Below are positions 14,366 through 36,509 of a DNA stretch of 57,106 nucleotides, one piece after another; the stretch's first letter is position 1; each line of letters starts with the position of its first letter. The notes under the pieces are model-generated. The model saw nothing but the letters and a program-made list of their open reading frames with translations, did not search any database and was not told where the DNA came from. The position numbers and the translations under genes were made by a program. The stretch comes from Rothia gullae (lineage in GTDB: Bacteria > Actinomycetota > Actinomycetes > Actinomycetales > Micrococcaceae), in assembly GCF_024294905.1 (NCBI RefSeq), contig NZ_JANCOC010000008.1:51769-108874 (forward strand), given 5' to 3'.

Positions 14366-14392
14366 CCATCCATTCGAGAAAGAGACCCCCGC

Positions 14393-16951: not shown

Positions 16952-16984
16952 TTAGTTGGAAAGGTAGCTGCTTCGGTAGCGCGT

Positions 16985-17214: not shown

Positions 17215-17251
17215 AGGGTTGTTACTGGTTTGGCAGGCAAGACCTGAGTTA
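17215..17251 (+). promoter_or_regulatory. RAT: BglG/LicT-type ribonucleic antiterminator site
   Basis: The segment GGGTTGTTACTGG, then TTTGGCAGGCAAGACCTGA, closely follows the RAT consensus of the E. coli bgl leader (GGATTGTTACTGCATTCGCAGGCAAAACCTGA). In that system a dimeric BglG/LicT protein binds the RAT hairpin and prevents an overlapping terminator from forming. The element lies 229 nt upstream of the PTS gene, as expected. I see no BglG-family gene in this window. Confidence 0.85.
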
Positions 17252-17378
17252 CTCAACACCGTATGGGACGGCAGCATATATCTGCCGAGAATCCCCTCTA
17301 TTTGCTGTACCGAAGCTCCATAGCGAGTACGAGTGTAGTGCTTCCGGTGGTCGAGAGACTCGGGTCTTTTGTGTTTCC
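17239..17378 (+). terminator. Terminator overlapping the RAT (attenuator of the PTS gene)
   Basis: The 3' part of the RAT (AAGACCTGAG, 17239-17248) can pair with CTCGGGTCTT (17359-17368), one pair being G-U, and this is followed by TTGTGTTTCC. The roughly 110 nt between contain smaller hairpins, including CGGCAG/CTGCCG at 17269-17287. Mutual exclusion with the RAT hairpin is the standard bgl mechanism. The unusually long loop makes this assignment less certain than the RAT itself. Confidence 0.55.
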
Positions 17379-17479
17379 TGGCCGTGTTTTCCGAGGCTTT
17401 TTCGGCTACCGCAACGTCAGGTAGGCACAGCCTCCGGCAGCAACCGTATAGACATTGACCGCATATCTAAGGAAGTATC

Positions 17480-20924: not shown

Positions 20925-22628
20925 CTACTCCTGCCAGCCAACGTTGACCCAGTAGTCAGCGCTGGTGTAGCTCTGCTTGAACAGGGACGGACCGTAGTTC
21001 GCAATCTTAGCCTTAGCAGCGGCGTACATCGGGCCGTTTGCGTAGGGCAGGTACACTGCGACCTTCTCGTAGTAGAGCTTCTCCGCCTCGTTAGCGATCT
21101 TGATGCGCTCGTCTTCCTTCTCGGTGTTCTGCAGCTTCTCGATGAGCTTATCAACTTCAGGGTCACCGACCTCGAACACCTCGGTGGTGAAGAAGTAGGG
21201 CGCCGAGGAAGCCAGGTCGGGCAGAACGCCCCAACCGGTGAAGATTGCTTCGTAGCTCTTCTGACCAAGCACGGAGTTGGAGTTCGACTGCGGCTGGTTG
21301 TCAGCGCTCAAGCGAATACCTGCAGACTTCAGCTGCTGCTCCAGAATCTGGTAGACCGCCTGGTAGACAGCCTCGGAGCCGAAGGAGGTCATAGCGAAAC
21401 CAGCAACCTTGCCGTCCTTAGCGTAGTAGTCGCCGGACTTGGAGTAGCCTGCAGCCTCCAGAATCTTGCCTGCAGCCTGTGCACCGGTGTCACCAGCGTA
21501 GTTGTTCTGGTAGCCCTTCTGGAACGGCATTGCGATGATAGAGCCGGGCAGCGGCTCGGTCCAGCCGAGCTGCGAGAAGTATGCCTTAGCAATCTGCTCG
21601 CGATCCACAGCGGCGAGGATTGCGCGGCGCAGTGCCAGGTCCTCAATGCGCTTGGGGTTCAGCTGAATGATGTTGACGTTGGTGTTCTGGCTCTGTCGAA
21701 TCTCGGTGCCTGCCTGGCCCTTCACAGCGTTGTAGCTGGTTGCACCCACGAAGGTGAAGGCATCCAGTTCGCCGTTCTTGAAGCTTGCACGGATTGCTTC
21801 GGAGTCCATCTGACGCCAGATGATGCGGTCCAGCACAGGCTTCTCGCCCCACCACTTGTCGTTCTTGACCAGGGTGAGAACCTTCTGGGAAGAGTTCCAC
21901 TCGCCAATCTTGAAGGGACCTGCCCAGTACTGGTCGAGGGGCTTGTCAACGAAGCCTTCGTTGAAGAGGTTGACGTCTTCAAGGGCGGGGTGGATTGCGA
22001 AGGCGCACAGACCCTCGGAGGGGTAATACGGAGCCTTCATGGTGACCTTGACGTGGAAGTTGTTGCCGTCCACAGCCTCGATGCTCTCAACCTGCTGCCA
22101 CATGGTGTTGTCGGTGATGTGGTAGGGGTTGTCGGTGGTTGCGCGGTAGACCTTCCACATGGCGCGAACAGCGTTCACGTCCATGGGGGTGCCGTCGTTG
22201 AAGGCTGCCTTGGGGTTGATCTTGAAGGTTGCAGTCTGCACACCGTCGACGGTTTCAGTCTTGTGCTCGGTGCAGAACTCGGGGTTGAGGGTGCCTTCAC
22301 CGTCGGGGCTCATGGTGTAGAAGCCCATGACAGCAGCGATGTTGCAGGGTGCCAGCGCGTCCAGGTTGCTGGAGGTGTAGCCGCTCTGGGTCTGCAGGTT
22401 GAAGTTCGGGCCCAGGGCGGTAGCCGCGAGAGTCAGGGTACCGCCCTTCTTGAGGGAGGAACGGTCCTGCTTGTTAATCTGAAGGTTCTTCAGAATATCT
22501 TCAGCATTGTTAGCGGCGCTACCGCCAACCTTTTCCTTCGAGCCGCCGCAGGCAGCCAGCAGACCAACGGTACCGAGGGCAACGGTGCCGGTCAGGAGGG
22601 TACGGCGAGAGACAGACATGCTCTTCAT
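20925..22628 (-). CDS. ABC oligopeptide-type substrate-binding lipoprotein, paralog A
   Basis: SBP_bac_5-family receptor, 567 residues, presumably serving the OppBCDF transporter encoded upstream. Signal: SRRTLLTGTVALG with lipobox LLAAC, a Tat-type lipoprotein signal (Cys about residue 27). Typical family blocks: LKKGGTLTLAATALGPNFN, FNDGTPMDVNAVRAMWKVYR, KVLTLVKNDKWWGEKP and ALRRAILAAVDREQIAK. It shares subfamily-1 features with B and C (INKQDRSSLK after the lipobox, QxGYTSSNL, YWAGPFKIGEWNSS). Start: ATG 22628 with AGGAG upstream; the 69 residues further upstream are unlike a signal. The ligand is unknown but probably a peptide. It is the promoter-distal copy of six. Confidence 0.9.
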   Translation of the reverse strand: MKSMSVSRRTLLTGTVALGTVGLLAACGGSKEKVGGSAANNAEDILKNLQINKQDRSSLKKGGTLTLAATALGPNFNLQTQSGYTSSNLDALAPCNIAAVMGFYTMSPDGEGTLNPEFCTEHKTETVDGVQTATFKINPKAAFNDGTPMDVNAVRAMWKVYRATTDNPYHITDNTMWQQVESIEAVDGNNFHVKVTMKAPYYPSEGLCAFAIHPALEDVNLFNEGFVDKPLDQYWAGPFKIGEWNSSQKVLTLVKNDKWWGEKPVLDRIIWRQMDSEAIRASFKNGELDAFTFVGATSYNAVKGQAGTEIRQSQNTNVNIIQLNPKRIEDLALRRAILAAVDREQIAKAYFSQLGWTEPLPGSIIAMPFQKGYQNNYAGDTGAQAAGKILEAAGYSKSGDYYAKDGKVAGFAMTSFGSEAVYQAVYQILEQQLKSAGIRLSADNQPQSNSNSVLGQKSYEAIFTGWGVLPDLASSAPYFFTTEVFEVGDPEVDKLIEKLQNTEKEDERIKIANEAEKLYYEKVAVYLPYANGPMYAAAKAKIANYGPSLFKQSYTSADYWVNVGWQE

Positions 22629-22752
22629 GGAATTTCTCCTAGAGTATTCGCAGTGTTGTGGAGTCGGTACGCGAACGGTGCGTAGCCAGCACTCCAACCC
22701 GGCGGGAGGACAGTCTCTGCCGGGGCGGGCAGAATGCCCACATTTGTTTTTA

Positions 22753-22758
22753 AGTATA
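22753..22758 (-). promoter_or_regulatory. Candidate -10 (TATACT) of SBP paralog A
   Basis: On the minus strand TATACT is followed by TAAAAACAAATGTGGGC. Paralogs B, C and D have the same layout, a TATACT or TACACT hexamer followed by an A-rich stretch ending in AATGTG and G-rich bases. The gap to the start codon is about 125 nt. Confidence 0.5.
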
Positions 22759-22780
22759 TCCTTACTGCTCTCTAGGGCAT

Positions 22781-22830
22781 GGAAAAGCGGCGTGCTACAG
22801 AAGGTTTTTAATCCTTTTGTAACACGCCGC
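22781..22830 (-). terminator. Terminator of SBP paralog B
   Basis: An 18-bp stem formed by GCGGCGTGCTACAGAAGG and CCTTTTGTAACACGCCGC (two G-U pairs), with CTTTTCC following on the minus strand. It lies 55 nt beyond the paralog B stop codon, before paralog A. Confidence 0.85.
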
Positions 22831-22884
22831 GGCAACGCTTTTGCCCTTATGGGGCATGTGCGCTGTGCTCAGCGCTTAAGATTT

Positions 22885-24585
22885 TTACTTTTCCCAACCG
22901 ACGTTGATCCATACGTTCGGGTTGTAGTAGGGCAGACCGAAGAGCATGGGGCCGTAGTTCGCCAGACCCTTACGGCACGCCTTGAAGTTCGGGCCGTTGT
23001 GGGTGGGCACATAGATGGCAACCTCTTCCAGGTGGCGCTTCTCCAGCTCGTTCATGATCTTAAGCTGTTCCTTCCGGTCCTCGGTGGACATCATGGTTGC
23101 TGCCAGCGAGTCCAGATCCTTACCGTGACCGTTGTTGGTCTCGGAGATGTAGAAGTAGTTCGCCGCATCCACCGGGGAGGTGGTGATGCCGTAGCCACCG
23201 CTCTTGATGGTGAAGTTCTTCGCGGAGATGATGCTTGCCATTTCGGATGCACCGTGGTTGTCGATGCTCAGCTCAATGCCGATTTCCTTCATCTGCTGGG
23301 TGAGGAACTGTGCGGTGGAGCTTACGACCGGGTCGGTACCGAAGGTAGTCACCGAGTAGGAAGCCTTAACGCCGTCCTTCTCGTAGTAGTCGCCGTTCTT
23401 GGTGTAGCCTGCATCCTCGAGGATCTTGGTGGCGACGTCCTTGCCAAGCTTGGTCGGGTAGTTGTCCTGGTAGCCTTCCTGCATGGGCAGCATGCACATG
23501 GAGCCGGGCAGGTTTTCCTTCCAGCCGAGCTTCTCGTAGCGCAGCTTGAGCAGCTGGTCACGGTTCAGGGCGGCAACGAAGGCACGGCGGACGGGCAGGG
23601 GCATCTTTTCGGGGTTGATTTCGTAGTTGCCCACGGCCAGTGCGCTACCCTTGCGGATGTCGACGTTAGCGACGGTGGAGAGCTCGTTGTAGGAGCTGAG
23701 GGTGCTGGCGTCAGCGTAGTCAATCTCGCCGTTCTTGAATGCTGCCTGCTCTGCCTGGGAGCTCATTTCACGCCAGGTGATGCGCTCGAGCAGAGGCTTG
23801 GTGCCCCACCACTTCTCGTTGCGGACAACGGTGAGGACCTTGCCAGAGGAATCCCACTCGCTGACCTTGAAGGGACCTGCCCAGTACTTGTCCAGAGGCT
23901 TGCCGTTCATGCCGTCGTTGAAGAATGTGACGTCGACAAATGCCGGGTGCAGGAAGGAGGTGAAGCTACCTTCGATGGGGTACCAGGGCTTGGTCATGGT
24001 GACCTTCACGTGGCGGGAGTCGCCGTCGATCTCTTCGATGCTTGCGACCTGTTCCCACATCGGCGAGGGGGTGATCTGGTAGTCCTTACCCTCTGCTGCG
24101 CCGCGGTAGATGGTCAGGTAGCTACGGACAGCAGCGATGTCGATGGGGGTGCCGTCGTTGAAGACTGCCTTCGGGTTGATCTTGAAGGTGACGGTCTGCA
24201 CGCCGTCAACGGTCTGAGCCTTGTACTCGGTGACGTAGTCCTCGTTCATGTGGCCTTCACCGCGGAAATCAGCGTAGTAGCCGCCGGTGAATGAGGAGTT
24301 AATTGCCGCCTGAATGTTCAGGTTACCTGCGGTGTAGCCGTTGGTGTTGAGGATGTTGAAGTTCGGGCCAATGCCGTCTGCGCTCAGTCGCAGCTCGCCG
24401 CTGTCCTTGAGGGTGGAGCGGTCCTTCTCGTTGTAGGAGACTGCCTTGGACAGGTCGTCGCCGGCGGAGAGAGCGTTGCTCGCGTTCTTGGTGGAGTTGC
24501 CGCCACAGGCTGCGAGCAGGCCGACAGTACCCAGGGCAACGGTGCCGGTGAGCAGGGTACGACGGTTGAGGGTGAAAGTGGTCAT
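22885..24585 (-). CDS. ABC oligopeptide-type substrate-binding lipoprotein, paralog B
   Basis: 566-residue SBP_bac_5 lipoprotein. Signal LNRRTLLTGTVALGTVGLL with lipobox LLAAC, again a twin-arginine pattern. The body shows LKDSGELRLSADGIGPNFN, FNDGTPIDIAAVRSYLTIYR, KYWAGPFKVSEWDSS and VRRAFVAALNRDQLLK. It belongs with A and C by its N-terminus, but it has lost the first Gly of the KQGG motif (LKDSGEL) and is the most divergent of that trio. Start ATG 24585 with GAGGA 9 nt upstream. It is bracketed by its own terminator and a TATACT promoter box, so it is probably a separate transcription unit. Confidence 0.9.
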   Translation of the reverse strand: MTTFTLNRRTLLTGTVALGTVGLLAACGGNSTKNASNALSAGDDLSKAVSYNEKDRSTLKDSGELRLSADGIGPNFNILNTNGYTAGNLNIQAAINSSFTGGYYADFRGEGHMNEDYVTEYKAQTVDGVQTVTFKINPKAVFNDGTPIDIAAVRSYLTIYRGAAEGKDYQITPSPMWEQVASIEEIDGDSRHVKVTMTKPWYPIEGSFTSFLHPAFVDVTFFNDGMNGKPLDKYWAGPFKVSEWDSSGKVLTVVRNEKWWGTKPLLERITWREMSSQAEQAAFKNGEIDYADASTLSSYNELSTVANVDIRKGSALAVGNYEINPEKMPLPVRRAFVAALNRDQLLKLRYEKLGWKENLPGSMCMLPMQEGYQDNYPTKLGKDVATKILEDAGYTKNGDYYEKDGVKASYSVTTFGTDPVVSSTAQFLTQQMKEIGIELSIDNHGASEMASIISAKNFTIKSGGYGITTSPVDAANYFYISETNNGHGKDLDSLAATMMSTEDRKEQLKIMNELEKRHLEEVAIYVPTHNGPNFKACRKGLANYGPMLFGLPYYNPNVWINVGWEK

Positions 24586-24681
24586 TAGTTTTCCTCAGTT
24601 AGGTGGGATGCTACTTTGCTGTACGCGGGGGAACACAACCCGCACACCTTTGTGACAGCACACACATTTTGTATTGGCAAT

Positions 24682-24687
24682 AGTATA
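24682..24687 (-). promoter_or_regulatory. Candidate -10 (TATACT) of SBP paralog B
   Basis: Minus-strand TATACT followed by ATTGCCAATACAAAATGTGT and then GTGCTGTCACAAAGGTG. Paralog C has almost the same downstream block, AATGTGTGGGCTCTCACAAA then GGTG. The leader would be about 90 nt. Confidence 0.55.
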
Positions 24688-24787
24688 CACACATTTCCCA
24701 TGCACTATGACCTAGTTCACCGTTTCAGGGAAAATATTTCAGTCAATTCCCGAAACCACCCCACCACAAAACCACCCTTCAAAAACA

Positions 24788-24838
24788 TAGAAAAGTCCCG
24801 CAGCACCCCGCCTCTAGGGCGGAATACCGCGGGACTTT
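24788..24838 (-). terminator. Terminator of SBP paralog C
   Basis: AAAGTCCCGC pairs with GCGGGACTTT, with an inner CCGCC/GGCGG stem, followed on the minus strand by TTTCTATG. It lies 80 nt after the paralog C stop. Confidence 0.8.
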
Positions 24839-24917
24839 ACACTTCTGGAGTCTTATGCTGGCGCCTCTGAAAATTCAGAAACCACCGAATAGGAATCCAG
24901 AAAATTAACCTGTGGCT

Positions 24918-26627
24918 TTAGTTCTGCCAACCCACATTGACCCAGCGCTTGGGGTCGGTGTAACTGGTTGCAAAGAGGGAAGGACCGTAGTTAGCCAGCT
25001 TCTCCTTCACAGCTACGTAGCTGGGGCCGTTAGCGTAGGGGAAGTAAATAGCAACCTTCTCCATGTGCTGCTTCTCAGCCTCAGCAGCCATCTTCAGCTG
25101 CTCCTCGTGGGATTCCTTCTCGTAAATGGACGCGATGTACTTATCCAGCTCAGGATCACCCACGCCCTCGTTGATTTCACTGGTGTAGAAGTACTGAACG
25201 CTGTCTGCGGGGTCAGCACCAATACCCCAACCGGAGAAGGCACAGTCGTACTGCTTGGAGCCCATCACGGAGTTGAACTGGGACTGCGGCTGGTTGTCCT
25301 GCTCTAGCTTAATACCTGCCGCCTTGAGCTGCTGCTCGAGGTTCTGGAACTGAGCCAGGGAGGTTGCGTCCGAACCGAAGTAGGTGATGGAGAAGCCTGC
25401 AGTCTTGCCGTCCTTGGCATAGTAGTCGCCATTCTTGGAGTAGCCTGCTGCCTCCAGGATCTTTGCCGCAGCCTCGGCACCGGGGTTGGACGGCATGTTG
25501 TCCTGGTAGCCCTTCTGGAAGGGCATAGCAATCAGGGAGCCGGTCAGGGGCTCTTCCCAGTTGATCTGGCCGAACTTGACCTTAGCCAGCTGGGAGCGGT
25601 CAACCGCGGCGAAGACTGCACGGCGCAGGGCGGTGTCGGTCACGCGAGTCGGGTTGAACTGCAGGTTGATCACGCCGACGCTCTGACCGGAGCGGATCTG
25701 GACACCGGGCTGACCCTTGACAGCGTTGTAGGTTGCCAGGCCAGCAAAGCTAATGCTGTCCAGCTCGCCATTCTTGAACGCTGCGCGCTCTGCTTCGTCG
25801 CCCATTTCACGCCAGATAATGCGGTCCAGCAGCGGCTTCTCACCCCACCACTTGTCGTTGGACACGAGGGTGAGGGTCTTAGCCGAAGAGTTCCACTCGC
25901 CAATCTTGAAGGGGCCGGACCAATACTGATCCATAGGCTTGTTCACGAAGCCGTTGTTGAAGAGCTCCTTGTCGGTCAGTGCGGGGTGCAGACCGAGCAG
26001 GCCGAGGGTCTCAGCGGGGTACAGGGGCTTGGACATAACAATCTTGACACGGGTCTTGTCGCCATCCACAGGGTCGATGGACGCCACCTGCTGCCAGAAG
26101 GGGGCAGCGATAACGTTGTAGCCGTCATCAGGGTTGCGGTAGACAGTCCACGCGGCGCGGATCGCCTCAATGTCAACGGGGGTGCCGTCGTTGAAGACAG
26201 CCTTAGAGTTGAGCTTGAAGGTGATGGTCTGCACGCCGTCAACGGTCTCTGCCTTGTAGTCGCTGACGTAGTCGTCGTTGAGGCTGTAGTCGCCGGCAGG
26301 ACTCAGGGAGGTGAAGCCAATAGCGGAGGGGATGTTGCAGGCACCACCGAATGCGGTGAGGTTCTCGGTGGTGTAGCCGCTCTGAGTCAGAATGTTGAAG
26401 TTCGGGCCGACTGCGGAGACGCTACCGCGAAACTCGCCACCCTGTTTGAGGGAGGAACGATCCTGCTTGTTGATTTCGAGGTTCTTGACGATTTCCTCGG
26501 TGCTTGATGCAGCCTTACCGCTGATCTTCTTGTCAGAGCCGCCACCGCATGCAGCGAGCAGGCCGACGGTACCCAGGGCAACAGTGCCGGTCAGCAGGGT
26601 ACGGCGATTAATACGTAGATGAGTCAT
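24918..26627 (-). CDS. ABC oligopeptide-type substrate-binding lipoprotein, paralog C
   Basis: 569-residue SBP_bac_5 lipoprotein. Signal INRRTLLTGTVALG with lipobox LLAAC. Subfamily-1 hallmarks: INKQDRSSLKQGGEF, SAVGPNFNILTQSGYTTENL, FNDGTPVDIEAIRAAWTVYR, YWSGPFKIGEWNSSAKTLTL and ALRRAVFAAVDRSQLAK. It is closest to A over the whole length. ATG 26627 follows AGGAG at 9 nt. Its 290-nt upstream stretch contains a TATACT box and, further up, two tight hairpins. The ligand is probably a peptide, by transporter context. Confidence 0.9.
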   Translation of the reverse strand: MTHLRINRRTLLTGTVALGTVGLLAACGGGSDKKISGKAASSTEEIVKNLEINKQDRSSLKQGGEFRGSVSAVGPNFNILTQSGYTTENLTAFGGACNIPSAIGFTSLSPAGDYSLNDDYVSDYKAETVDGVQTITFKLNSKAVFNDGTPVDIEAIRAAWTVYRNPDDGYNVIAAPFWQQVASIDPVDGDKTRVKIVMSKPLYPAETLGLLGLHPALTDKELFNNGFVNKPMDQYWSGPFKIGEWNSSAKTLTLVSNDKWWGEKPLLDRIIWREMGDEAERAAFKNGELDSISFAGLATYNAVKGQPGVQIRSGQSVGVINLQFNPTRVTDTALRRAVFAAVDRSQLAKVKFGQINWEEPLTGSLIAMPFQKGYQDNMPSNPGAEAAAKILEAAGYSKNGDYYAKDGKTAGFSITYFGSDATSLAQFQNLEQQLKAAGIKLEQDNQPQSQFNSVMGSKQYDCAFSGWGIGADPADSVQYFYTSEINEGVGDPELDKYIASIYEKESHEEQLKMAAEAEKQHMEKVAIYFPYANGPSYVAVKEKLANYGPSLFATSYTDPKRWVNVGWQN

Positions 26628-26764
26628 ATATTTATTCTCCTCATGCCGGAGGGCTCAGGTGCTATTTGATACGCGCACCGTGTTGTGCGCCGATTTTTCG
26701 GGAGCGCTGAAGCTCCCGCCCATCACCTTTGTGAGAGCCCACACATTGTTTGTGGTTGAAACAC

Positions 26765-26770
26765 AGTATA
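26765..26770 (-). promoter_or_regulatory. Candidate -10 (TATACT) of SBP paralog C
   Basis: Minus-strand GGTATACTGTG, followed by ACAAACAATGTGTGGGCTC and TCACAAAGGTG. This matches the paralog B leader block almost base for base, indicating a shared promoter and leader. No good -35 is seen. Confidence 0.55.
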
Positions 26771-27003
26771 CCCCCAAAAGAAGCGATGCAGACCACAGTC
26801 CAATCCGTGGAAGAACTATACACCGTCTAAAAATTACGGGTTCAACACCTGAACCCGCATCATCACGCGGAAGCCGCGTGCGAAAACTAAAAAATGAAAT
26901 ATTATATCGAATTGGCGCGCGAGCGCGTCACATCCAATGCTTTGAGAATCGTTACAAGTTACAAGCACAGCAACGGGGTAGCTATATCGCACTAAACCCT
27001 CCA

Positions 27004-27062
27004 CAAGAAAAAGCTCCCCAACCCTATCCGACACTGCGAAAACGTATAGGGGCGGGGAGCTT
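27004..27062 (-). terminator. Terminator of SBP paralog D
   Basis: AAGCTCCCC pairs with GGGGAGCTT and CCCTAT with ATAGGG inside it. On the minus strand the stem is followed by TTTTTTCTTG, a good U-tract, 12 nt after the stop codon. Confidence 0.88.
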
Positions 27063-27073
27063 AAAACTGCGGC

Positions 27074-28775
27074 TTATGCCATCCAGCCGACCGCAGACCA
27101 GTCGGTGGTCTTGAAGAGGAACGCACCGTAGTTAGCGAGCTTCGGGCGGCATGCCTTGAAGTCCGGACCATTGAGGAAGGGGATGAAGAGGCAAACTTCG
27201 CTCATGTGCTTCTTCTCAATTTCGTTGCACTTCTCGGCGCGCTTAGCGTCGTCGAGAATGGTGACCATCTCGTCGACCATAGCGTCAATTTCGGGGGTGC
27301 CGACGCCGTTCCAGTTCTTGGAGTGGTAGAAGTACTCGGCAGCACTGGTCGGTTCGGAGCTCACGCCGAAGCCCGAAATGCTCACGTCGTACTCGCGGTT
27401 ACCAACAACCTTCGAGAATTCGGACTGTGCACGCGAATCGAGCTCGAAGTTAATGCCGATTTCCTTCATGCTCTGGATGAAGGTCTGTGCCTGGCCCTTG
27501 GTGGTGGCGTCATCACCGAAGGTGGTCAGCTTCAGGGTGACGGTCTTGCCGTCCTTCGCGTAGAAGTCGCCAGACTTGGTGTAGCCTGCCTTCTCCAGGA
27601 CCTTGCGTGCTTCCTCCGGGTTACGGGCCGGGTAGTTGTCACGGTAGTGCTGGGAGGAACCCAACAGAAGCATCGAGCCGGGAACTTCTTCTTCGTAGGG
27701 CAGACCCTGGAAGCGAATCTTTGCCAGAGCACCACGGTCGATACCCAGGAAGATTGCCTTACGCACAGCAGTATCGGTGATGTGCTCTGCGTTCAGGTTC
27801 ATACCGCCGGCGAAGAGGCGGTGACCGCGGCGGATTTCAGAGTTCGCAACATCCTTCATCTCGTTGTAGGCGCTGAGGGTACGTGATTCCACGACGTCCA
27901 GTTCGCCGTTCTTGTAGGCGGCGCGAGCTGCAGCGTCTGCCATTTCACGCACGACGATGCGATCCAGCTTGGGCTTGTCACCCCACCACTTGTCGTTGGG
28001 CACAGCAGTGAAGGTCTTCTCGGAGGAGTTCCAGCCGTTGGGTGCCAGGGTGAAGGGACCGCAACCGAGCTCGGGGTGGGGGTTGTCCACGAAGCCTTCG
28101 TTGAAGAGGTTTACGTCGAGCATCGCCGGGTGCAGGATTCCACCAAAGAGCAGACCCTTGACGGGGTTGTGTGCAGTCTTGAAAACAACGCGTGCGTGGT
28201 AGCGGTCGCCATCGATAGCTTCAACGCTTTCAATGTACTCGTAGATACCTGCTGCGGCAATCTTGTATTCACCGTCGGGGTCACGCTGGATCTGCCAGGT
28301 TGCCTTGAGGGCGTCGATGTCGATGGGGGGTGCCATCGTTGAAGACTGCCTTGGGGTTCAGGCGAACCTCTGCGGTGATCTTGCCGTCTACTTCCTTAGC
28401 TTCGAAGCCGAGGCAGTAGTTAGGGTCGAGCTCATCTTCGCCCTTGTAGGTGCTGCGCCAGATACCGGCACCGGCGATAACGCCCATGGTTTCGGCGACG
28501 GAGGTGCTCGAGCCGTTCTGGGAGAAGCGGTTGAAGTCCGGGCCAAGGGAGTAGGTGCTCAGGTTCAGGGTACCGCCCTGCTTGAGCTTCGAGGGGTCCT
28601 GCTCGTTGATTTCATAGAACGGGGTTTCGCTTGCCTTGTACTCGGTCTTGGAGGACGAGGAGCCACAAGCGCTCAGTACGCCGGCAGCAGCGACGGCGGT
28701 TGCGCCACCGAACAGTACGCGGCGGCTCATGATCGGGTTGAATCCGGAGAGGGTGGGGATGGGCTGGGGGCTCAT
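27074..28775 (-). pseudogene. ABC substrate-binding lipoprotein, paralog D, frameshifted at a G6 run
   Basis: The N-terminal part (ATG 28775 with AAGGAG upstream) reads MSRRVLFGGATAV, lipobox VLSAC, then LKQGGTLNLSTYSLGPDFN up to KAVFNDGTP. It then leaves frame and reaches an early stop. The remainder, from IDIDALKATWQIQR to the stop at 27074, is intact in another frame and complete for the family. The break lies at a run of six C on the minus strand (six G, plus strand 28326-28331). Paralogs A, B, C and E have five at the same FNDGTP codons. Removing one base restores a protein of about 566 residues of subfamily 2 (with E and F). It could be a true pseudogene, a phase-variable switch or a sequencing error. 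Confidence 0.85.
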
Positions 28776-29189
28776 GACGGGCTCCTTGTGGGTGTGGACT
28801 ACGCTGATGCAGTGTTTGGCAGTGTAGAGTGGGTGGCTCGCGTGCTCTGGAGGCGGGGTTTCCGTCTGCAGGAGCGCCTGCCATTTGCGGTGATGGGCGG
28901 GCAGGTCAAGCCATACAAAATAATGTGACCTAAAGCTATGTCCTAAGCCACATTTAATATTTTTAGTAGTGTACACCACACACATCACTGCAAGTGTGCA
29001 ACACGATAAATATTTCTTAATTATTACGCCCGGCCCTAAGATACCGAACCTAAATCCATATCGACACAACCCCACCACCCTTCACACAGTGCCCCCTCCC
29101 CCACCTCCAGAAATAGTCAACGGGCACAGCAGAGCGGGCCGAACGCGCATACACACATTCGACCCGCTCGCAAGACAGCCAGTCGTCTT
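28776..29189. other. Intergenic region between SBP paralogs D and E
   Basis: 414 nt without a supported gene. On the minus strand it has the paralog D promoter candidate (TACACT, 28968-28973, followed by an A-rich stretch and AAATGTGGC) and, near the E stop, an imperfect stem AGCGGGCCGAA/TTCGACCCGCT (about 29131-29166), a weak terminator without a U-tract. The ~220 nt up to 28970 would be leader. Confidence 0.55.
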
Positions 29190-30920
29190 TTAGGAGTTCA
29201 TCCAGCCCACAGCAGTCCAGTCCATCGACTTATACAGGCGCGGACCGTAGTTAGCCAGAGTCTTCTTGACCATCACAAAGTCAGGACCGTTCGTAATAGT
29301 ACCCAGGAAGGCGAACTCAGCCATGTGCTTCTTCTCAATCTCGTTGCAGGCAAGGTTACGTTCCTTATCATCCTCAATGAGGGTCATGGCGTCGATGAGG
29401 GCATCGATTTCCTTGCTGCCGATACCTTCGTTGTTCTCGGAGTAGTAGAACTGCTTGGTACCCTCGGTAGCGTCAGCAGAGATCGAGTAGCCGCTGAAGG
29501 AAATATCGTAGTCCCAGTTACCCAAAATAGTGGCGAACTCACTATCAGCGTGCTGATCGATCCGGATCTCAATGCCGACATCCTTCATCTGCTGAGTGAA
29601 GGTCTGAGCCTCACCCTTCGTGGTCGGGTCATCACCGAAGACCACCACTGCGCAGCCAGCCTTCGTGCCATCCTTCTCGTAGTAATCGCCGTTCTTGGTG
29701 TAACCGGCGGCCTCCAGGATCTTCTGCGCCTCCGAAACGCTGTTATTCGGGGTAGGGTAGGAATCCTGATAGTAGGGCGAGAAGGGCATGTGAATCATCG
29801 AACCGGCAATAGTCTCCTCGTAGGGCAGACCCTGGAACTGAATCTTTGCGAGTGCTTCACGGTTGGTGCCGACGAAGATCGCCTTACGCAAGGCAGCATC
29901 CTTGACGCGGCGAGGATTGATATCCAGACCACCGGCGTAGAGGCGGGTACCCTTACGCAGTTCGGTACCCGCAATGTTCTTCACCTCGGCATAGGTGGAG
30001 GAGGTGCTTGCACCGATAGCGTCAATTTCATCGTTCTTGAACGCAGCACGTGCAGCGCTGGACTCCATCTGGGTAAAGACAATCTTGTCCAGCAGGGGCT
30101 TGGCGCCCCACCACTTGTCGTTGGGTACAACACTGAAGGTCTTCGCGGTGGAGTCCCAGCCCTTATCCGCCAGGGTGAAGGGGCCAGCCCAGTACTCGGG
30201 GTGGGGTGCGTCCACGAAGCCGTTGTTGAAGAGCTCGACGTCTTCCAGTGCGGGGTGCAGAATCTCCGAGAAGAGACTCTGAAGCGGGTAGAAGGGCTTG
30301 GAGAAGGTGACGGTTGCACTGTAGTCGTCTTCGCCCTTTTCTACGGATTCAACAAATTCGTAGATGCCGCTGGAGACAATGTTGTAGCCGTTATCCAGGC
30401 TCTTAAAAATATTCCAGGTGGACTGAAGTGCCTTGTAGGTAATGGGGGTGCCATCGTTGAAGACAGCCTTGGGGTTGAGCTTGACGGCAACCTGAATCTT
30501 GTCGTCCTTCTTGCTGTGTTCGAAGGAGACAGCGAAGTCAGTGTTCAGCTTGTAGGTGCCATCAAAGTCGAGGTTCCACATGCCGGCCTGGCTGATGGTG
30601 CTCATAACGTTGACGTTATCGCTGGTGTTACCGCTCTGGGTGTAGAAGTTGAAGTTCGGACCGATGGATCCGGCGGGTAGGCGCAGGATGCCACCCTTCT
30701 TCAGGCTGTTCACGTCCTGGGCGTTGATGTCGTAGAGGTCTTCGATCTTGGCACCGGCGCCGGCAGCCTTGGTCTTTTCAGAGCTTGCACTGCCGTTGCC
30801 GCAGGCGCTGAGCAGACCTACAGCTCCCAGAGCCGCGGTGCCGCCAATGAGGGCGCGGCGGCTGAAGCTGTTCTTGGTCGCTTCGTGGCTACTCGCGGTG
30901 TATGCGGTGTTGGCGGTCAT
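29190..30920 (-). CDS. ABC oligopeptide-type substrate-binding lipoprotein, paralog E
   Basis: 576-residue SBP_bac_5 lipoprotein of subfamily 2. The signal is longer than in the others: ~20 polar residues, then FSRRALIGGTAALG and lipobox LLSAC, a twin-arginine type. Body: YDINAQDVNSLKKGGIL, SIGPNFNFYTQSGN, FNDGTPITYKALQSTWNIFK, NGFVDAPHPEYWAGPF, VPNDKWWGAKP and ALRKAIFVGTNREALAK. ATG 30920 is supported by AGAAGGAAA 9-10 nt upstream; the 17 residues before it do not look like a signal. A perfect 8+8 inverted repeat lies about 65 nt upstream. The C-terminus AVGWMNS parallels D (AVGWMA) and F (KVGWAK). Confidence 0.9.
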   Translation of the reverse strand: MTANTAYTASSHEATKNSFSRRALIGGTAALGAVGLLSACGNGSASSEKTKAAGAGAKIEDLYDINAQDVNSLKKGGILRLPAGSIGPNFNFYTQSGNTSDNVNVMSTISQAGMWNLDFDGTYKLNTDFAVSFEHSKKDDKIQVAVKLNPKAVFNDGTPITYKALQSTWNIFKSLDNGYNIVSSGIYEFVESVEKGEDDYSATVTFSKPFYPLQSLFSEILHPALEDVELFNNGFVDAPHPEYWAGPFTLADKGWDSTAKTFSVVPNDKWWGAKPLLDKIVFTQMESSAARAAFKNDEIDAIGASTSSTYAEVKNIAGTELRKGTRLYAGGLDINPRRVKDAALRKAIFVGTNREALAKIQFQGLPYEETIAGSMIHMPFSPYYQDSYPTPNNSVSEAQKILEAAGYTKNGDYYEKDGTKAGCAVVVFGDDPTTKGEAQTFTQQMKDVGIEIRIDQHADSEFATILGNWDYDISFSGYSISADATEGTKQFYYSENNEGIGSKEIDALIDAMTLIEDDKERNLACNEIEKKHMAEFAFLGTITNGPDFVMVKKTLANYGPRLYKSMDWTAVGWMNS

Positions 30921-30983
30921 GGGAGTGGTTTCCTTCTGTCTTATGCGGGCGGGTGTATCCCGTATCCCCAAAATAATGATTAT

Positions 30984-31003
30984 TTATGCAGGGCACTGCA
31001 TAA
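30984..31003. promoter_or_regulatory. Inverted repeat upstream of SBP paralog E
   Basis: TTATGCAG-GGCA-CTGCATAA, a perfect 8+8 palindrome with a 4-nt spacer, 64 nt before the paralog E start. It lies just downstream of a TACAGT -10 candidate, where a repressor would act. No other SBP paralog has it, so E may be controlled separately. The regulator is unknown. Confidence 0.6.
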
Positions 31004-31202
31004 CTTTGTATGACTCCACTGTAGCGCACCTCGAGAGTGAAAACCAAGAATTTTCACGATATTTCTTAATATTTATCGCACTTTTTGAATATCCATACTA
31101 TGAATACCCTGTTTTTGCGCGAATTTTTCGGATTTTATCGGATAGCTATACCACCGCTCCCCCGCATCGGTACACAAAAACACCCAAAGCCCCCTTTCGA
31201 AA

Positions 31203-31243
31203 ATACAAAAAGTGTCCACCAGGATGATCCGGGTGGACACTTT
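31203..31243 (-). terminator. Terminator of SBP paralog F
   Basis: AAAGTGTCCACC pairs perfectly with GGTGGACACTTT, followed on the minus strand by TTTGTATTT. It lies 45 nt after the stop codon. Confidence 0.9.
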
Positions 31244-31287
31244 CAATAGCTCCAGGCTATTCACCTAGTAGGTGAAGGGAAGAGGAC

Positions 31288-32985
31288 TTACTTAGCCCAA
31301 CCGACCTTCTCCCAGTGAATACCATTGCCCTGGTAGAGGGAAACGCCGTAGTTGCGCAGACCCTTCTTGACGAACTTGTACTCGGGACCATTGAAGAGCG
31401 GAACCAGCACAGCAATCTCAGAGAGGTGCTTCTTCTCAATCTCGTTACATGCCAGGTTGCGTTCCTTGTCGTCAGCAATGAGCTTCATCTTCTCGATCAT
31501 CTCATTGATTTCGTCGGTGCCAGCGTCCTCGGGCTTCTCACGCAGGTAGAACTGCTGGGTAGCCTGGGTAGCATCCGGGTCGCTCAGAGCGTAGCCCGAT
31601 GCAGTTGCGTCGTAGTCCTTAGCCTGCATTGCCTTACCGAATTCGCTTGCAGCGCGGGATTCGAGCTCAACATTAATGCCGACAGCCTTGAGCTGCTGAA
31701 CAACGGTCTGAGCAACAGCCTTGGAGGTGGGGTCCTCGCCGAAGACGGAGTACTTGAAGGCAGCCTGCTTGCCGTCCTTCTCGTAGAACTCGCCGTTCTT
31801 GGTGTAGCCTGCCTCTTCCAGAATCTTCGATGCAGCAGCTGCATCGTTGTTCGGGGTCGGGTAGACATCCTGGTAGTACTCGGAGAAGGGCATGTGAATC
31901 ATCGAACCGGGCTGCTTCTCTTCGTAATCCAGACCCTGGAAACGAACCTTGGCAATTGCCTCACGGTTCATGCCAGCGACCACAGCGCGGCGCAGAGCAA
32001 CGTCCTGCATGCGGGCGGGGTTCATGACCATGCCGCCGGAGAAGAGGCGAACACCGCGACGCATCTCGGTGTTAGCAATTTCCTTCAGCTCCTTGTAGCT
32101 TGCAGCAGCGGTAGCGGGAGCAGCGTCAATTTCATCGTTCTTGAACGCCGCACGCTCAGCAGCGGAATCCATCTGACGGAAGACGATGCGCTCCAGAACG
32201 GGCTTCTCGCCCCACCACTTGTCATTGCGGGTCAGGGTCAGGGTCTTCTCGGAGGAGTTCCAGCCGCCCTCAGCTACGGTGAAGGGACCAGTAGCGTATT
32301 CGGGGTGCGGGTTGTCCACGAAGCCTTCGTTGAAGAGGTTCTTATCCAGCAGAGCCGGGTGCAGAATTTCACCGAAGAGGATGTTCAGGGGGTAGTAGGG
32401 CTTTGCGAAAGTGACCTTGACCTTGAAGTCATCACCGTCGCGCTCAACGGAGCCAACGCTGCTGTAAATACCGCTGGTCTCAATCTTGTAGTCGCCATCG
32501 ACGCTCTTGAGGATGTTCCAGGTAGCCTGCAGCGCCTTGTAGTCGATAGGGGTACCGTCGTTGAACTTAGCCTGGGGGTTCAGCTCAATGGAGACAACGG
32601 GCAGACCGTTTTCCTCAGCGATTTCGAAGCTCTTTGCAAAGTCGGTAGACAGGGTGCGCTTACCCATGGGGTTAGCCTGCCAGAGACCGCTGTAGTACAT
32701 GGGGCTCAGAGCAGCCTGGGTGTAGGAGGTAACACCGGTGCCGAAGAGGTTGAAGTCCGGACCCAGTGCAGTCACAGACAGGCGCAGGGTACCGCCCTGC
32801 TTCAGGTCCGAAACAGCGGTCTCAGCAATGTCGTAAAGTTCCTTGGCATCGGTACCCGCGGTTGCTCCCTGGTTGGTTGCCTTGGAGTCCTTGGACGAAC
32901 CGCACGCAGCCAGTACGCCCGCGGTACCCAGTGCTGCAGCGCCACCGAGAACGGTACGACGGTTCAGGATGAAATTCTTCTCCAT
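31288..32985 (-). CDS. ABC oligopeptide-type substrate-binding lipoprotein, paralog F
   Basis: 565-residue SBP_bac_5 lipoprotein, the copy nearest the opp permease genes. Signal LNRRTVLGGAAALG with lipobox VLAAC (twin-arginine type). Subfamily-2 features: YDIAETAVSDLKQGGTL, ALGPDFNLFGTGVTSY, FNDGTPIDYKALQATWNILK, NEGFVDNPHPEYATGPF and LTRNDKWWGEKP. ATG 32985 follows AGAGGA at about 9 nt. A terminator after oppDF and 429 nt of spacing suggest that it has its own promoter rather than belonging to the oppBCDF message. Confidence 0.9.
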   Translation of the reverse strand: MEKNFILNRRTVLGGAAALGTAGVLAACGSSKDSKATNQGATAGTDAKELYDIAETAVSDLKQGGTLRLSVTALGPDFNLFGTGVTSYTQAALSPMYYSGLWQANPMGKRTLSTDFAKSFEIAEENGLPVVSIELNPQAKFNDGTPIDYKALQATWNILKSVDGDYKIETSGIYSSVGSVERDGDDFKVKVTFAKPYYPLNILFGEILHPALLDKNLFNEGFVDNPHPEYATGPFTVAEGGWNSSEKTLTLTRNDKWWGEKPVLERIVFRQMDSAAERAAFKNDEIDAAPATAAASYKELKEIANTEMRRGVRLFSGGMVMNPARMQDVALRRAVVAGMNREAIAKVRFQGLDYEEKQPGSMIHMPFSEYYQDVYPTPNNDAAAASKILEEAGYTKNGEFYEKDGKQAAFKYSVFGEDPTSKAVAQTVVQQLKAVGINVELESRAASEFGKAMQAKDYDATASGYALSDPDATQATQQFYLREKPEDAGTDEINEMIEKMKLIADDKERNLACNEIEKKHLSEIAVLVPLFNGPEYKFVKKGLRNYGVSLYQGNGIHWEKVGWAK

Positions 32986-33414
32986 GAGAGTGTCCTCTTA
33001 TACGTTTGACCCTCAATAATCCTGCAGGAAAGCGTCAAGGGTTCCCTGCTCATGCGCCGCAATAGGCTGCGGTGAGCGATGAATTAGTGCCGGTCTATGA
33101 ATGTGTTCCTTGAGGTACGCCCCTAGCGGCGCACCCACAGGCTTAATTATGGCTTACCTGCGGTATAGAAGCTCACCTATAAATATTCATATCTTGAATG
33201 GTGAGAAAGGTTACACCTAGTCAGTGCGGTTTTTCCTGTTTTCTTGCTGATTTCAGTGCCTAGCGCCACATTCTGAGGCTCCCGCCGTCTCACCAGGTGA
33301 CAATCTCAAGCTGCACGCGCCTCACCAGTACCGGGCATTAAAAACCCGAGGGGCGAATATTCAACGAATATTCGCCCCTCGGCACACATGCGACTTATTC
33401 AGCCGACTCTAGAG
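32986..33414. other. Intergenic region between SBP paralog F and oppDF
   Basis: 429 nt without a gene. It contains the oppDF terminator and, on the minus strand, a TATACC hexamer near 33160. Around 33172-33206 there is a nested dyad: CTCACC/GGTGAG arms enclosing ATTCA-TATCT-TGAAT, which may be an operator for paralog F. Confidence 0.55.
33340..33382 (-). terminator. Terminator after oppDF
   Basis: CCGAGGGGCGAATATTC pairs perfectly with GAATATTCGCCCCTCGG (3-nt loop), followed on the minus strand by GTTTTTAATG. It separates the oppBCDF transcript from the six SBP genes. Confidence 0.93.
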
Positions 33415-35508
33415 CTACACCATAGCGGCCTCAGCCTCAGGGTAGTAGCAAGCATAACCGTGATCCTGGCCCTCAACGGGGGTCAGTTCCGGCATCTCCT
33501 CCAGGCAACGACGCTTCTTGTCCTCAGGCAGCAGCTTGAAGACCGGGCAACGGCTCGAGAAGCCACAACCCTTAGGTGCGTTCACCGGAGTGGGCAGGTC
33601 GCCCTCAAGCATAATGCGGTGGCGCTTTGCCTCAACCTCGGGATCCGGAACCGGAATCGCCGAGAGCAGTGCACGGGTGTACGGGTGGATTGGGTTGTCG
33701 AACACCTGGTCGACATCACCAATCTCAACAATACGACCCAGGTACATCACTGCAACGCGGTCGGATGCGTGGCGAATCACCGCGAGGTCGTGAGCAACCA
33801 TCAGGTAGCTCAAGCCCAGGTTTGCACGCAGCTCCTCCAACAGGTTAATCACACCAGCCTGGACGGACACGTCCAGTGCGGACACCGGCTCATCCAGAAC
33901 CACGAGCTTGGGGTTCACGGCAAGCGCACGAGCAATACCGATACGCTGACGCTGACCACCAGAGAACTGGTTCGGGAAGCGGTTCACGTGGTCAGGTTGC
34001 AGACCCACAATGTGCATCAGCTCGATAACACGCTTCTTGATGTCCGCCTTGTTCATGCCCTGGTTTTCCAGCGGCTCAGCAAGCACCTCGTAAACGGTGA
34101 AGCGCGGATCCAAAGCACCGGTGGGGTCCTGGAACACCATCTGCTGGTTCTTACGCAGCTCAAGAATCTCACCCGCGGACTTGCCGTCCTTGGTGGAGGT
34201 TCCGTTGATCAGAATCTCACCGTCGGTGTTCTTATTGAACTCCATGATTTCCAGCAGGGTGGTGGTCTTACCACAACCGGACTCACCCACAATGGAGAAG
34301 CACTCGCCCTCACGAATATCGAAGGACAGGCCGTTCACAGCCTTCACAGTGCCCACGCGGCGCTTAATCAGTGCACCCTTCATGAGCGGGAAGTGCTTCT
34401 TGACGTTACGGACCTCCAGGACGGGGGCACGCTCCTCACGCGGAATACCGTCATACTTCGATACCGGGGGCTCCGGAACCGGGTACAGCTCGTCAGCAGT
34501 CTTACCGACCAGCTCCTGAGAGATGGTGCAGGAGGAGTAGTGGCCCTCGCCAACGCCTTCCAGCAGCTGCAGATCGGGCTCGCCGTTGGAGTCCTGGCAG
34601 CACTGGCCACCGCTCTTAGCGATGGGGCAACGCGGGCGGAAGGAGCACGCGGTTACCGGGTTGATCAGGTTCGGAGGGGTACCCTCAATCGGAACCAGGG
34701 AGACCTTCTCGGAACGGTCCACACGCGGGACCGCACCCAGCAGACCGATGGTGTACGGGTGGGAGGGATGCTTGTACAGGTCTTCTGCCTTCGCAATCTC
34801 CACCGGCTTACCAGCGTACATCACCAGAATGTCGTCAGCCATACCAGCCACAACACCAAGGTCGTGGGTAATCATGATGGTCGCTGCGCCGGTCTCATCC
34901 TGAGCCTTCTGCATAACCTCCAGCACCTGCGCCTGAATGGTCACATCCAGTGCGGTGGTGGGCTCATCGGCGATGAGCACGCGGGGGTCATTCGCAATCG
35001 CCATAGCAATCATGATGCGCTGACGCATACCACCGGAGAACTCGTGCGGGAAGGAACGCAGGCGATCAGCCGGCGAGGGAATACCCACCATACGCATCAG
35101 TTCGATGGAACGGTCCTTGATAGCCTGCCTGCTCATGCCCTTGTTGTGGACCTTGAGCACCTCAGCGATCTGATCACCAATGGTGTACACGGGGGTCAGC
35201 GAGGACAGCGGATCCTGGAAGACCATGGAGATCTCCTTGCCGCGGTATGCGCACATTTCCTTATCGCTCAGACCCAGCAGCTCGGTGCCGTTGTACTTAA
35301 TCGAGCCGGTGATGTCAGCGGTAGTCGGGTGCAGACCCATAATCGCCATGGAGGCAACGGACTTACCGGAACCGGACTCACCCACAATACCCAGGGTCTT
35401 ACCGGGATACAGGTCAAAGTTCACACCGCGAACAGCATGCACGATGCCATTCTCAGTGTTGAAGCGGACGTTGAGGTCCTTAACGCTCAGAACGGGAGAG
35501 GTACTCAT
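33415..35508 (-). CDS. oppDF: Oligopeptide ABC transporter, fused double ATPase (OppD-OppF)
   Basis: Cytoplasmic ATPase of the peptide importer; one 697-residue chain carries both domains. Domain 1 (about 1-330, OppD-like): Walker A GESGSGKS, signature FSGGM, Walker B VLIADEPTTALD, then the HPYTIGLLGAVPRVD tail with a Cys-containing CSFRPRCP cluster. Domain 2 (about 365-690, OppF-like): Walker A GESGCGKTTT, signature FSGGQRQRIGIARAL, Walker B LVVLDEPVSALD, tail PIHPYTRALLSAIPVPDPE and Cys-rich CGFSSRCP. Fused ATPases are usual for this transporter type in Micrococcales. Its ATG overlaps the oppC stop codon (TAATG), showing translational coupling. Confidence 0.93.
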   Translation of the reverse strand: MSTSPVLSVKDLNVRFNTENGIVHAVRGVNFDLYPGKTLGIVGESGSGKSVASMAIMGLHPTTADITGSIKYNGTELLGLSDKEMCAYRGKEISMVFQDPLSSLTPVYTIGDQIAEVLKVHNKGMSRQAIKDRSIELMRMVGIPSPADRLRSFPHEFSGGMRQRIMIAMAIANDPRVLIADEPTTALDVTIQAQVLEVMQKAQDETGAATIMITHDLGVVAGMADDILVMYAGKPVEIAKAEDLYKHPSHPYTIGLLGAVPRVDRSEKVSLVPIEGTPPNLINPVTACSFRPRCPIAKSGGQCCQDSNGEPDLQLLEGVGEGHYSSCTISQELVGKTADELYPVPEPPVSKYDGIPREERAPVLEVRNVKKHFPLMKGALIKRRVGTVKAVNGLSFDIREGECFSIVGESGCGKTTTLLEIMEFNKNTDGEILINGTSTKDGKSAGEILELRKNQQMVFQDPTGALDPRFTVYEVLAEPLENQGMNKADIKKRVIELMHIVGLQPDHVNRFPNQFSGGQRQRIGIARALAVNPKLVVLDEPVSALDVSVQAGVINLLEELRANLGLSYLMVAHDLAVIRHASDRVAVMYLGRIVEIGDVDQVFDNPIHPYTRALLSAIPVPDPEVEAKRHRIMLEGDLPTPVNAPKGCGFSSRCPVFKLLPEDKKRRCLEEMPELTPVEGQDHGYACYYPEAEAAMV

Positions 35509-36509
35509 TAGTTCTTCGCCTCCTTTGCAGCGGCAGCAGGTGCCTCTGCCTTCTCGTTCTTCTTGGACTTCTTGATCTTACCGACAGACATGGAGGTCGG
35601 GTCGAATGCGTCACGCAGACCATCGTTCATGAGGGCCAGCGGACCAACCAGCAGGAAGAAGAACAGAACCGGGAACCAGAACATGTGCGGCAGGGTGTTA
35701 ATCTGCTGCGAAGCATCCGAAATCAGCGAACCCAGCGAGTAGTTGGGGTACTTAATACCGATGCCGATGAAGGAGTAGGCAACTTCAGAGAGCACAGCGC
35801 TCATGATGCCGCTGGTGAAGTTCAGAACCAGCAGGGAGCCGATGTTCGGAACCAGGTGGCGCATCACAATCTTGAAGGGGTGCACACCCATGTAGCGTGC
35901 AGCCTTCACGAAGTCGCGGTTGATGAGGGACTGTGCCATTGCACGAATAACACGGGCGCTACCCATCCAGCCGAAGGTAATCAGCACTGCAGAGAGCAGA
36001 ATCCAGGTGGGGACGCTCTTCTGAATCTGCTTACCAACCTGACCGTTGATCAGAATTGCCAGAATCAACAGTGAGGGCACCATAATCAGGGTCTCGAGGA
36101 TGAACAGCATAATCTTGTCGATCCAGCCACCGAAGTACGCCATCACACAGCCGTAGACTGCGGAGATGAACACGGTGACGAAACCAACGAGCACACCAAT
36201 TTCGAGAGAGGTCCAGACGGCCTCGACCATCATGGCGAACACGTCGTTACCCGCGATGGTGGTACCGAACCAGTGGTCAGCCGAGGGGCCTTCACCCAGC
36301 GCCATGTAGTCAATGTCGTTGGGCTTGTACTTGGTCAGGTACTTACCAAACAGGCCGAACAGACCCATGCCGATGAACACGGACAGGCCGAAGACTGCAG
36401 ACTTGTTACGCAGGAAGCGGCGCAGAATAATAACGCTCTTGTTGATGACCTTGAAGTTACCGTTCTCCTGTACCACCGGTACGGAGGAAGTTGCAGTTAC
36501 CTGGCTCAT
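35508..36509 (-). CDS. oppC: Oligopeptide ABC transporter permease OppC
   Basis: Inner-membrane permease, 333 residues, BPD_transp_1 family. It has an N-terminal OppC-type region (RRFLRNKSAVFGLSVF helix), a large external loop, five further helices and the EAA loop in RYMGVHPFKIVMRHLVPN, which docks on the ATPase. The C-terminal tail is Lys/Glu/Ala-rich (KIKKSKKNEKAEAPAAAAKEAKN spans the last ~24 residues), an extension beyond the usual OppC end. It overlaps oppB by 4 bp (ATGA) and oppDF by 1 bp. Confidence 0.92.
   Translation of the reverse strand: MSQVTATSSVPVVQENGNFKVINKSVIILRRFLRNKSAVFGLSVFIGMGLFGLFGKYLTKYKPNDIDYMALGEGPSADHWFGTTIAGNDVFAMMVEAVWTSLEIGVLVGFVTVFISAVYGCVMAYFGGWIDKIMLFILETLIMVPSLLILAILINGQVGKQIQKSVPTWILLSAVLITFGWMGSARVIRAMAQSLINRDFVKAARYMGVHPFKIVMRHLVPNIGSLLVLNFTSGIMSAVLSEVAYSFIGIGIKYPNYSLGSLISDASQQINTLPHMFWFPVLFFFLLVGPLALMNDGLRDAFDPTSMSVGKIKKSKKNEKAEAPAAAAKEAKN

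What the first reader, a model, noticed from the sequence alone, without database searches (positions are those of the whole stretch)
20925..32985. Six tandem paralogous peptide-binding lipoproteins behind one opp transporter
Six ~565-576-residue SBP_bac_5 lipoproteins with twin-arginine signals follow oppBCDF, most with terminator and promoter signals of their own. They split into subfamily 1 (A, B, C; INKQDRSSLK after the lipobox) and subfamily 2 (D, E, F; HPE-GPF pocket and C-terminal VGWxx). This resembles a receptor-repertoire system that lets one transporter accept many ligands, perhaps for host-derived peptides.
Basis: partly seen in the sequence, partly recalled or inferred. Interest (0 to 1): 0.75.

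Follow-up and report, generated by a model that had tools for sequence, protein, structure and literature searches.

The report
Six nutrient receptors sharing one transporter
A Rothia bacterium of the human-mouth group carries a row of six related surface proteins (one of them broken in this strain) that very probably all feed one transporter, and two of the six come in several distinct versions across the population, so this looks like a small set of interchangeable nutrient receptors.

Summary
oppB, oppC and one fused oppDF gene are followed by six SBP_bac_5 lipoprotein genes (A-F here, in transcription order). Five are intact; C is split between two frames. They form two subfamilies (ABC, DEF), mostly 39-61% identical.

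Four relatives carry all six, intact and in the same order. In each of the four, the Opp-ATPase domain oligo_HPY occurs only in this fused gene, so the six probably share one permease. Strong hairpins, conserved in five genomes, follow oppDF and every receptor. Other Micrococcaceae mostly have one receptor here.

New here: receptors A and E exist as several large allele classes, B as one. A has the highest dN/dS of the window against three of four relatives, E the second highest against two; against the fourth A is ordinary. A's variable sites are enriched at positions mapped to the ligand pocket; E's are not.

The closest structure is M. tuberculosis OppA, but 0 of 27 family proteins has the usual docking aspartate, so 'peptide' is inferred. 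The repertoire reading is partly supported; 'host-derived peptides' is untested. Borrelia and pneumococcus have functionally similar systems.

The parts
36506..37501 (-). oppB, permease
   Evidence: Pfam BPD_transp_1; found beside the receptors in 21 Rothia loci (in pieces in G002) and 14 outgroup loci
35508..36509 (-). oppC, permease
   Evidence: Pfam BPD_transp_1 and OppC_N
33415..35508 (-). oppDF, fused double ATPase; the only gene with oligo_HPY domains in 4 of 4 related genomes
   Evidence: Pfam ABC_tran x2, oligo_HPY x2
33346..33382 (-). terminator-like hairpin between oppDF and receptor A
   Evidence: z -8.0; conserved in 5 of 5 genomes
33185..33199 (-). palindrome ATTCA-N5-TGAAT upstream of A, possible operator
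   Evidence: perfect in 5 of 5 genomes; expected 0.02 in the window; 1-3 exact sites per genome against 1-2 for the backward control
31288..32985 (-). receptor A (type 1), RR motif and lipobox; multi-allelic
   Evidence: PF00496 E 4e-52; allele classes; pocket-enriched variation
31209..31243 (-). terminator-like hairpin between A and B
   Evidence: z -7.3; 5 of 5 genomes
31091..31105 (-). second copy of the palindrome upstream of B, one mismatch here
   Evidence: 0-2 mismatches in 5 genomes
29190..30920 (-). receptor B (type 1)
   Evidence: PF00496; one cluster of 5002 members
29132..29169 (-). hairpin between B and C, without a T run
   Evidence: z -7.1; 5 of 5 genomes
28281..28775 (-). receptor C (type 1), N-terminal piece, in one frame
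27074..28336 (-). receptor C, C-terminal piece, in another frame; open homologues in 4 of 4 relatives
   Evidence: PF00496 E 9e-42
27011..27062 (-). terminator-like hairpin between C and D
   Evidence: z -5.1; 5 of 5 genomes
24918..26627 (-). receptor D (type 2)
   Evidence: PF00496
24792..24838 (-). terminator-like hairpin between D and E
   Evidence: z -7.5; 5 of 5 genomes
22885..24585 (-). receptor E (type 2); multi-allelic
   Evidence: PF00496; four large clusters; dN/dS 0.17-0.28 against four relatives
22787..22830 (-). hairpin between E and F, short T run
   Evidence: z -7.5; 5 of 5 genomes
20925..22628 (-). receptor F (type 2)
   Evidence: PF00496
20847..20882 (-). terminator-like hairpin after F
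   Evidence: z -9.5; aligned in 5 of 5 genomes

Best explanation
This is the Opp-type ABC importer of a Rothia of the R. mucilaginosa group, of the actinobacterial oppB-oppC-fused oppDF-oppA kind, whose receptor gene was multiplied to six, in two types. Each receptor is a surface lipoprotein (RR motif, lipobox) that captures its own range of small ligands, most likely oligopeptides, and hands them to the same OppBC/DF permease. Each is made from its own transcription unit, so the mix of receptors can be tuned. Most receptors are kept constant, but A, and in another way E, is exchanged between a few allele classes by recombination; in A the exchanged parts include the ligand pocket, which would change what the one transporter takes up from strain to strain. 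Shown here: anatomy, single oligo_HPY gene in relatives, conservation, separating hairpins, phylogeny of the types, allele classes, pocket bias in A. Inferred: docking of all six to this permease, peptide ligands, different specificities, separate regulation.
Against: None of 27 family rows has the docking Asp at the OppA position, nor do the six have the two Arg, so classical peptide binding is not shown; the fold is also that of EDTA, nickel and opine receptors. C is broken here. The promoter scan is empty. Against G014 the dN of A is ordinary and TetR and an RNase H gene exceed E; against G028 five genes besides A have a higher dN/dS than E. The pocket list is recalled and mapped at about 18% identity. 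No dN/dS exceeds 1.
Confidence: 0.6

Rival explanations
1. Dosage and redundancy: the copies bind much the same peptides and were kept because a small genome with one Opp importer gains from more receptor protein; the alleles of A and E are tolerated variation.
For: OBPs elsewhere are promiscuous (356 peptides found on AmiA and 393 on AliB; PMC11192437, passages); one copy is broken here; the second receptor of G029 is broken too.
Against: Paralogues are only 39-61% identical yet kept in order and, for B, C, D and F, under strong constraint; A's differences are not spread evenly but enriched at mapped pocket sites.
Confidence: 0.2
2. The ligands of some or all copies are not peptides but metal chelates, opine-like or other small amphoteric compounds.
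Confidence: 0.2
3. The allele diversity of A and E is driven from outside: host antibodies, phage, or peptide antibiotics that enter through the receptor, rather than by nutrition.
For: They are predicted surface lipoproteins; E's variable sites avoid the mapped pocket (2/49 vs 62/472, Fisher p 0.07; 4.6% of circular shifts as low), as expected of outer-surface change.
Against: In A the bias is towards the pocket; B, C, D and F should be equally exposed but vary little.
Confidence: 0.25
4. The allele classes are only the trace of recombination with diverged lineages, with no selection for difference.
For: dS of A against G001 (0.36-0.37) is above that of the opp genes (0.07-0.13), so the A allele seems to come from elsewhere (B with 0.31 comes near); mosaic alleles exist.
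Against: E has ordinary dS (0.23 against G001) but about 4 to 8 times the dN of B, C, D and F; neutral import would raise dN and dS together.
Confidence: 0.25

Closest known systems
Mycobacterium tuberculosis OppABCD (Rv1280c-Rv1283c)
   Different: One receptor, not six; it has the GWxxD aspartate that the Rothia family lacks (alignment)
Borrelia burgdorferi Opp (OppA1-5)
   Same: Several oligopeptide-binding lipoproteins, three of them tandem, with one ATPase pair; each chromosomal gene reported to have its own promoter, and the receptors separate regulation (PMC5736914, abstract and passages)
   Different: Five receptors, two on plasmids; two permease pairs; docking Asp in four and Glu in the fifth; a spirochaete. 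Functional likeness; common descent of the arrays was not tested
Streptococcus pneumoniae Ami (AmiA, AliA, AliB, AliC, AliD)
   Same: Five SBP_bac_5 lipoproteins share one permease; strain-dependent set (AliC and AliD only in non-encapsulated strains) (PMC11192437, passages)
   Different: AmiA, AliA and AliB have locus tags far apart; N-terminus of the peptide bound by an aspartate in AliB and AliD
oppB-C-DF-A loci of other Micrococcaceae
   Same: Same set of oppB, oppC, oppDF and receptor in 14 of 14 fetched loci; most show the same GYTVG-type loop without the Asp
   Different: One receptor in 25 and two in 3 of the 28 genomes outside the genus that match

Membership tests
SBP_bac_5 / cluster C substrate-binding proteins | PF00496 over the gathering cut-off | tested here: met
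   A, B, D, E, F and the C-terminal piece of C over cut-off; the N-terminal piece of C has no match
SBP_bac_5 / cluster C substrate-binding proteins | Two-lobed cluster C fold | tested here: met
Actinobacterial OppABCD importer | oppB, oppC and fused ATPase directly beside the receptor | tested here: met
Actinobacterial OppABCD importer | Import of oligopeptides | not testable with these tools
   Needs binding or uptake assays
Classical oligopeptide-binding protein (OppA/DppA type) | Aspartate that docks the peptide's N-terminus | tested here: not met
   0 of 27 family rows have Asp in that column, both E. coli rows do; low-identity alignment, and an acidic residue often lies two columns further on
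Classical oligopeptide-binding protein (OppA/DppA type) | Arginines (OppA 404, 413) for the peptide's C-terminus | tested here: not met
   M/L/V/M/I/L and A/F/I/F/S/F in A-F (C from G001); contact list recalled
Nickel or staphylopine receptor (NikA, CntA) | NCBIfam equivalog cut-off | tested here: not met
   Best 97.9 bits against cut-offs of 393, 600 and 800
Multi-receptor Opp system (as in Borrelia, Ami) | Several receptors, one transporter in the genome | tested here: met
   oligo_HPY in one gene only in 4 of 4 relatives; the window's own genome is not held
Multi-receptor Opp system (as in Borrelia, Ami) | Receptors separately regulated | tested here: inconclusive
   Hairpins after oppDF and all receptors but no consensus promoters and no expression data

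The most novel reading that the evidence does not exclude
Receptor A is a population-level specificity switch: pocket blocks from the two ends of the protein (residues 83-87 and 446-483) come in two versions each and are re-combined between strains, so that one importer is given different ligand ranges by swapping cassettes of one receptor, while E varies outside the pocket under a different pressure. The family binds its ligands without the usual docking aspartate.
Probability: 0.3. Interest if true: 0.7.

Novelty: new variant of a known kind. Interest (0 to 1): 0.5.

Why it matters
R. mucilaginosa is a common human oral bacterium, and strains of it degrade gluten (PMC3177827, abstract and passages). 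If one importer is served by six receptors, and one of these has swappable pocket versions, then strains sharing a mouth could divide the peptide pool between them, and metagenomes could be typed for it. The system is small (one permease, six receptors), so the question whether receptor paralogues widen a transporter's diet or only raise its dose becomes directly testable.

Tried and rejected
Rejected: chance repeats or recent tandem copies (paralogues are 39-61% identical and each is closer to its counterpart in the relatives). Rejected: a second Opp transporter for some of the six. Rejected: a window full of frame errors as the cause of the broken C: the 26 other window ORFs that could be compared are open and constrained (dN/dS at most 0.29). 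A true lesion and a local sequencing error remain possible.

Tried, inconclusive: hybrid receptors between paralogues in the protein database (A, B, C, E and F in various pairs and both orders). Nearly all are single-member clusters, and one (P0204) joins R. mucilaginosa B to a receptor like that of G007, so assembly chimeras are likely and I draw nothing from them; the same doubt touches the re-combined A alleles (14 of 107 rows; one, P0069, on a 115 kb contig). Regulator of the palindrome: a TetR gene at 41041-41763 stands beside an MFS gene; nothing links it to the palindrome, and genome-wide exact counts (1-3) hardly exceed the backward control (1-2), so only position and conservation speak for it. 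Surface mapping of E's sites was not possible (no coordinates in the Python box). Genomes of the genus: of 35 searched, I fetched the 21 that showed the locus; of the other 14, three (G012, G025, G027) had no receptor of this family at E 1e-90 and 11 were not examined further. Papers: the listings of searches showed no paper on this Rothia locus; the library holds open-licence papers only. One structure was predicted; the second job was not used.
Full report
WHAT IS THERE. On the minus strand the window holds oppB (36506-37501), oppC (35508-36509), a fused double-ATPase oppDF (33415-35508) and then six receptor genes, named A to F here in transcription order. They are SBP_bac_5 by Pfam, with an RR motif and a lipobox cysteine near the start. 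A, B, D, E and F are intact (565, 576, 569, 566, 567 aa). C is split into two overlapping frames (28281-28775 and 27074-28336) and is open in 4 of 4 relatives.

WHOSE IT IS. The window's own assembly is not held. Receptor D is 95-99% identical in the four close relatives.

ONE TRANSPORTER. A search for the oligo_HPY domain of Opp/Dpp ATPases found it only in this fused gene, twice per genome, in 4 of 4 close relatives. G001 has seven SBP_bac_5 genes: these six and one far away, which is only 25% identical to a part of C and has no match to oppB, oppC or oppDF within the 10 kb fetched around it. So the six have no other Opp transporter to serve there.

HOW IT GREW. Of 149 family genomes searched, 34 have a receptor of this kind at E 1e-90: 6 of the genus and 28 outside it, of which 25 have one copy and 3 have two. 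In 14 of 14 fetched outside loci oppB, oppC and oppDF stand beside it. In the genus, 21 of 35 genomes were fetched with the locus: six receptors in 4, four in 2, three in 1 (frames broken), two in 12 (the second broken in G029), one in 2. The tree with outgroups (48 rows, drawn with a midpoint root) puts DEF together with the second receptors of G005, G017 and G024 (97/98), and ABC together with the first two of G007 and the first three of G034 (97/94). This suggests an old split into two types, upstream and downstream, followed by growth of each to three. It is not the whole story: the second receptors of G004 and G033 join the group of their first ones, so they look like a separate duplication, and the first receptors of G005, G017 and G024 do not join ABC in this tree.

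SEPARATE UNITS. After oppDF and after each of the six receptors stands a strong hairpin: z -5.1 to -9.5, 0 of 200 shuffles as stable for each of seven. In the six intergenic stretches the best structure among windows of 36-70 bases near the upstream gene is at or below -27.3 kcal/mol in 30 of 30 stretch-by-genome cases. Those after B and E lack a good T run. A plain promoter scan shows nothing (4 sites, 7.3 expected), but conserved blocks lie upstream of each gene. A and B share a palindrome, ATTCA-N5-TGAAT: perfect in 5 of 5 genomes before A, 0-2 mismatches before B (perfect in 2 of 5). Genome-wide there are 1 to 3 exact sites, the A site always among them and the B site in G015 and G028; the pattern read backwards gives 1 to 2, so the count by itself is not remarkable. 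It may be an operator; no regulator was found.

TWO RECEPTORS VARY. Over 27 window genes compared with four relatives (a 28th, at 38071-39048, had no match in the stretches fetched), dN/dS of A is 0.29, 0.12, 0.29, 0.26 and of E 0.28, 0.21, 0.26, 0.17 (G001, G014, G015, G028). Against G001 and G015 they rank first and second in dN and in dN/dS. Against G028 A ranks first in both and E lower. Against G014 A is ordinary; E is third in dN, behind TetR and an RNase H gene, and level with two others at the top of dN/dS. B, C, D and F stay at 0.04-0.12 in these comparisons; among all pairs of the five genomes F reaches 0.19. In the protein database (best 120 listed per search), B is one 90% cluster of 5002 members plus small ones, A has three large clusters (2195, 643 and 153 members; 81, 90 and 99% identical to the window) and E four (977, 724, 688, 164). 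Many one-member clusters close to 88-90% also exist for A and B and are read as clustering edges.

WHERE THEY VARY. Contact residues of E. coli OppA (list recalled; the numbering fits W416, C417, D419, R404 and R413 of the fetched gene) were mapped on the receptors. In A, 22 of 49 pocket-or-neighbour sites vary among five genomes against 113 of 471 others (odds ratio 2.6, p 0.003); the core list gives 11 of 23 against 124 of 497 (p 0.025). With a second, profile-based alignment it is 24 of 51 against 106 of 454 (p 0.0006) and, for the core, 12 of 25 against 118 of 480 (p 0.016). Circular shifts of the mask that reach the observed count: 1% and 0% for the two wide masks, 2.6% for both core masks (counts there start at residue 61). 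In E it is 2 of 49 against 62 of 472 (p 0.07; 4.6% of shifts as low). B, C, D and F show no bias (p 0.39 to 1). These are 6 genes by 2 masks, without correction, on alignments near 18% identity. Of the 24 variable pocket sites, 4 differ between the window and G014; the main difference is between these two and G001, G015, G028. Among 103 database alleles of A and 4 genomes, 14 of 107 pair the N-terminal version of one class (residue 85) with the C-terminal version of the other (residue 465); assembly chimeras cannot be excluded.

READING. A receptor set on one importer is the best explanation, functionally like Borrelia Opp and pneumococcal Ami, by descent an expanded actinobacterial OppABCD. 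New to me are the six-gene array in this lineage, its being the only Opp system found in the relatives, and two multi-allelic members. Peptide ligands, different specificities and separate regulation are inferred. 'Host-derived' is a guess; Rothia's known gluten cleavage (PMC3177827) makes dietary peptides a candidate as well.

Noticed in passing
window 38071-39048, minus strand: A 2-hydroxyacid dehydrogenase gene just upstream of oppB had no DNA match in the stretches of four relatives fetched around the locus, though much of the 400 bases before oppB is conserved.
   Followed up: no
L013 (G002), 2063-12619: oppB and all three receptors are broken into pieces in this genome, which suggests frame errors in that assembly.
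   Followed up: no
L014 (G034), 10950-17400: Genes that look like a PTS transporter and an MFS transporter lie between the third and the fourth receptor (no domain search run); in the window a PTS gene (17480-19552) lies beyond the last receptor. A rearrangement may have split or joined the array.
   Followed up: partly
L012 (G007), 12663-13769: An ORF for a putative membrane protein on the opposite strand sits inside the receptor array; a similar-looking one follows the third receptor of G034.
   Followed up: no
L042 (G076): The whole oppB-C-DF-A operon is duplicated in tandem in this non-Rothia genome: another way to add a receptor.
   Followed up: no
protein P0204: Hybrid of R. mucilaginosa receptor B and a receptor like that of G007, on a 5.7 kb metagenome contig; probably an assembly chimera.
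   Followed up: partly
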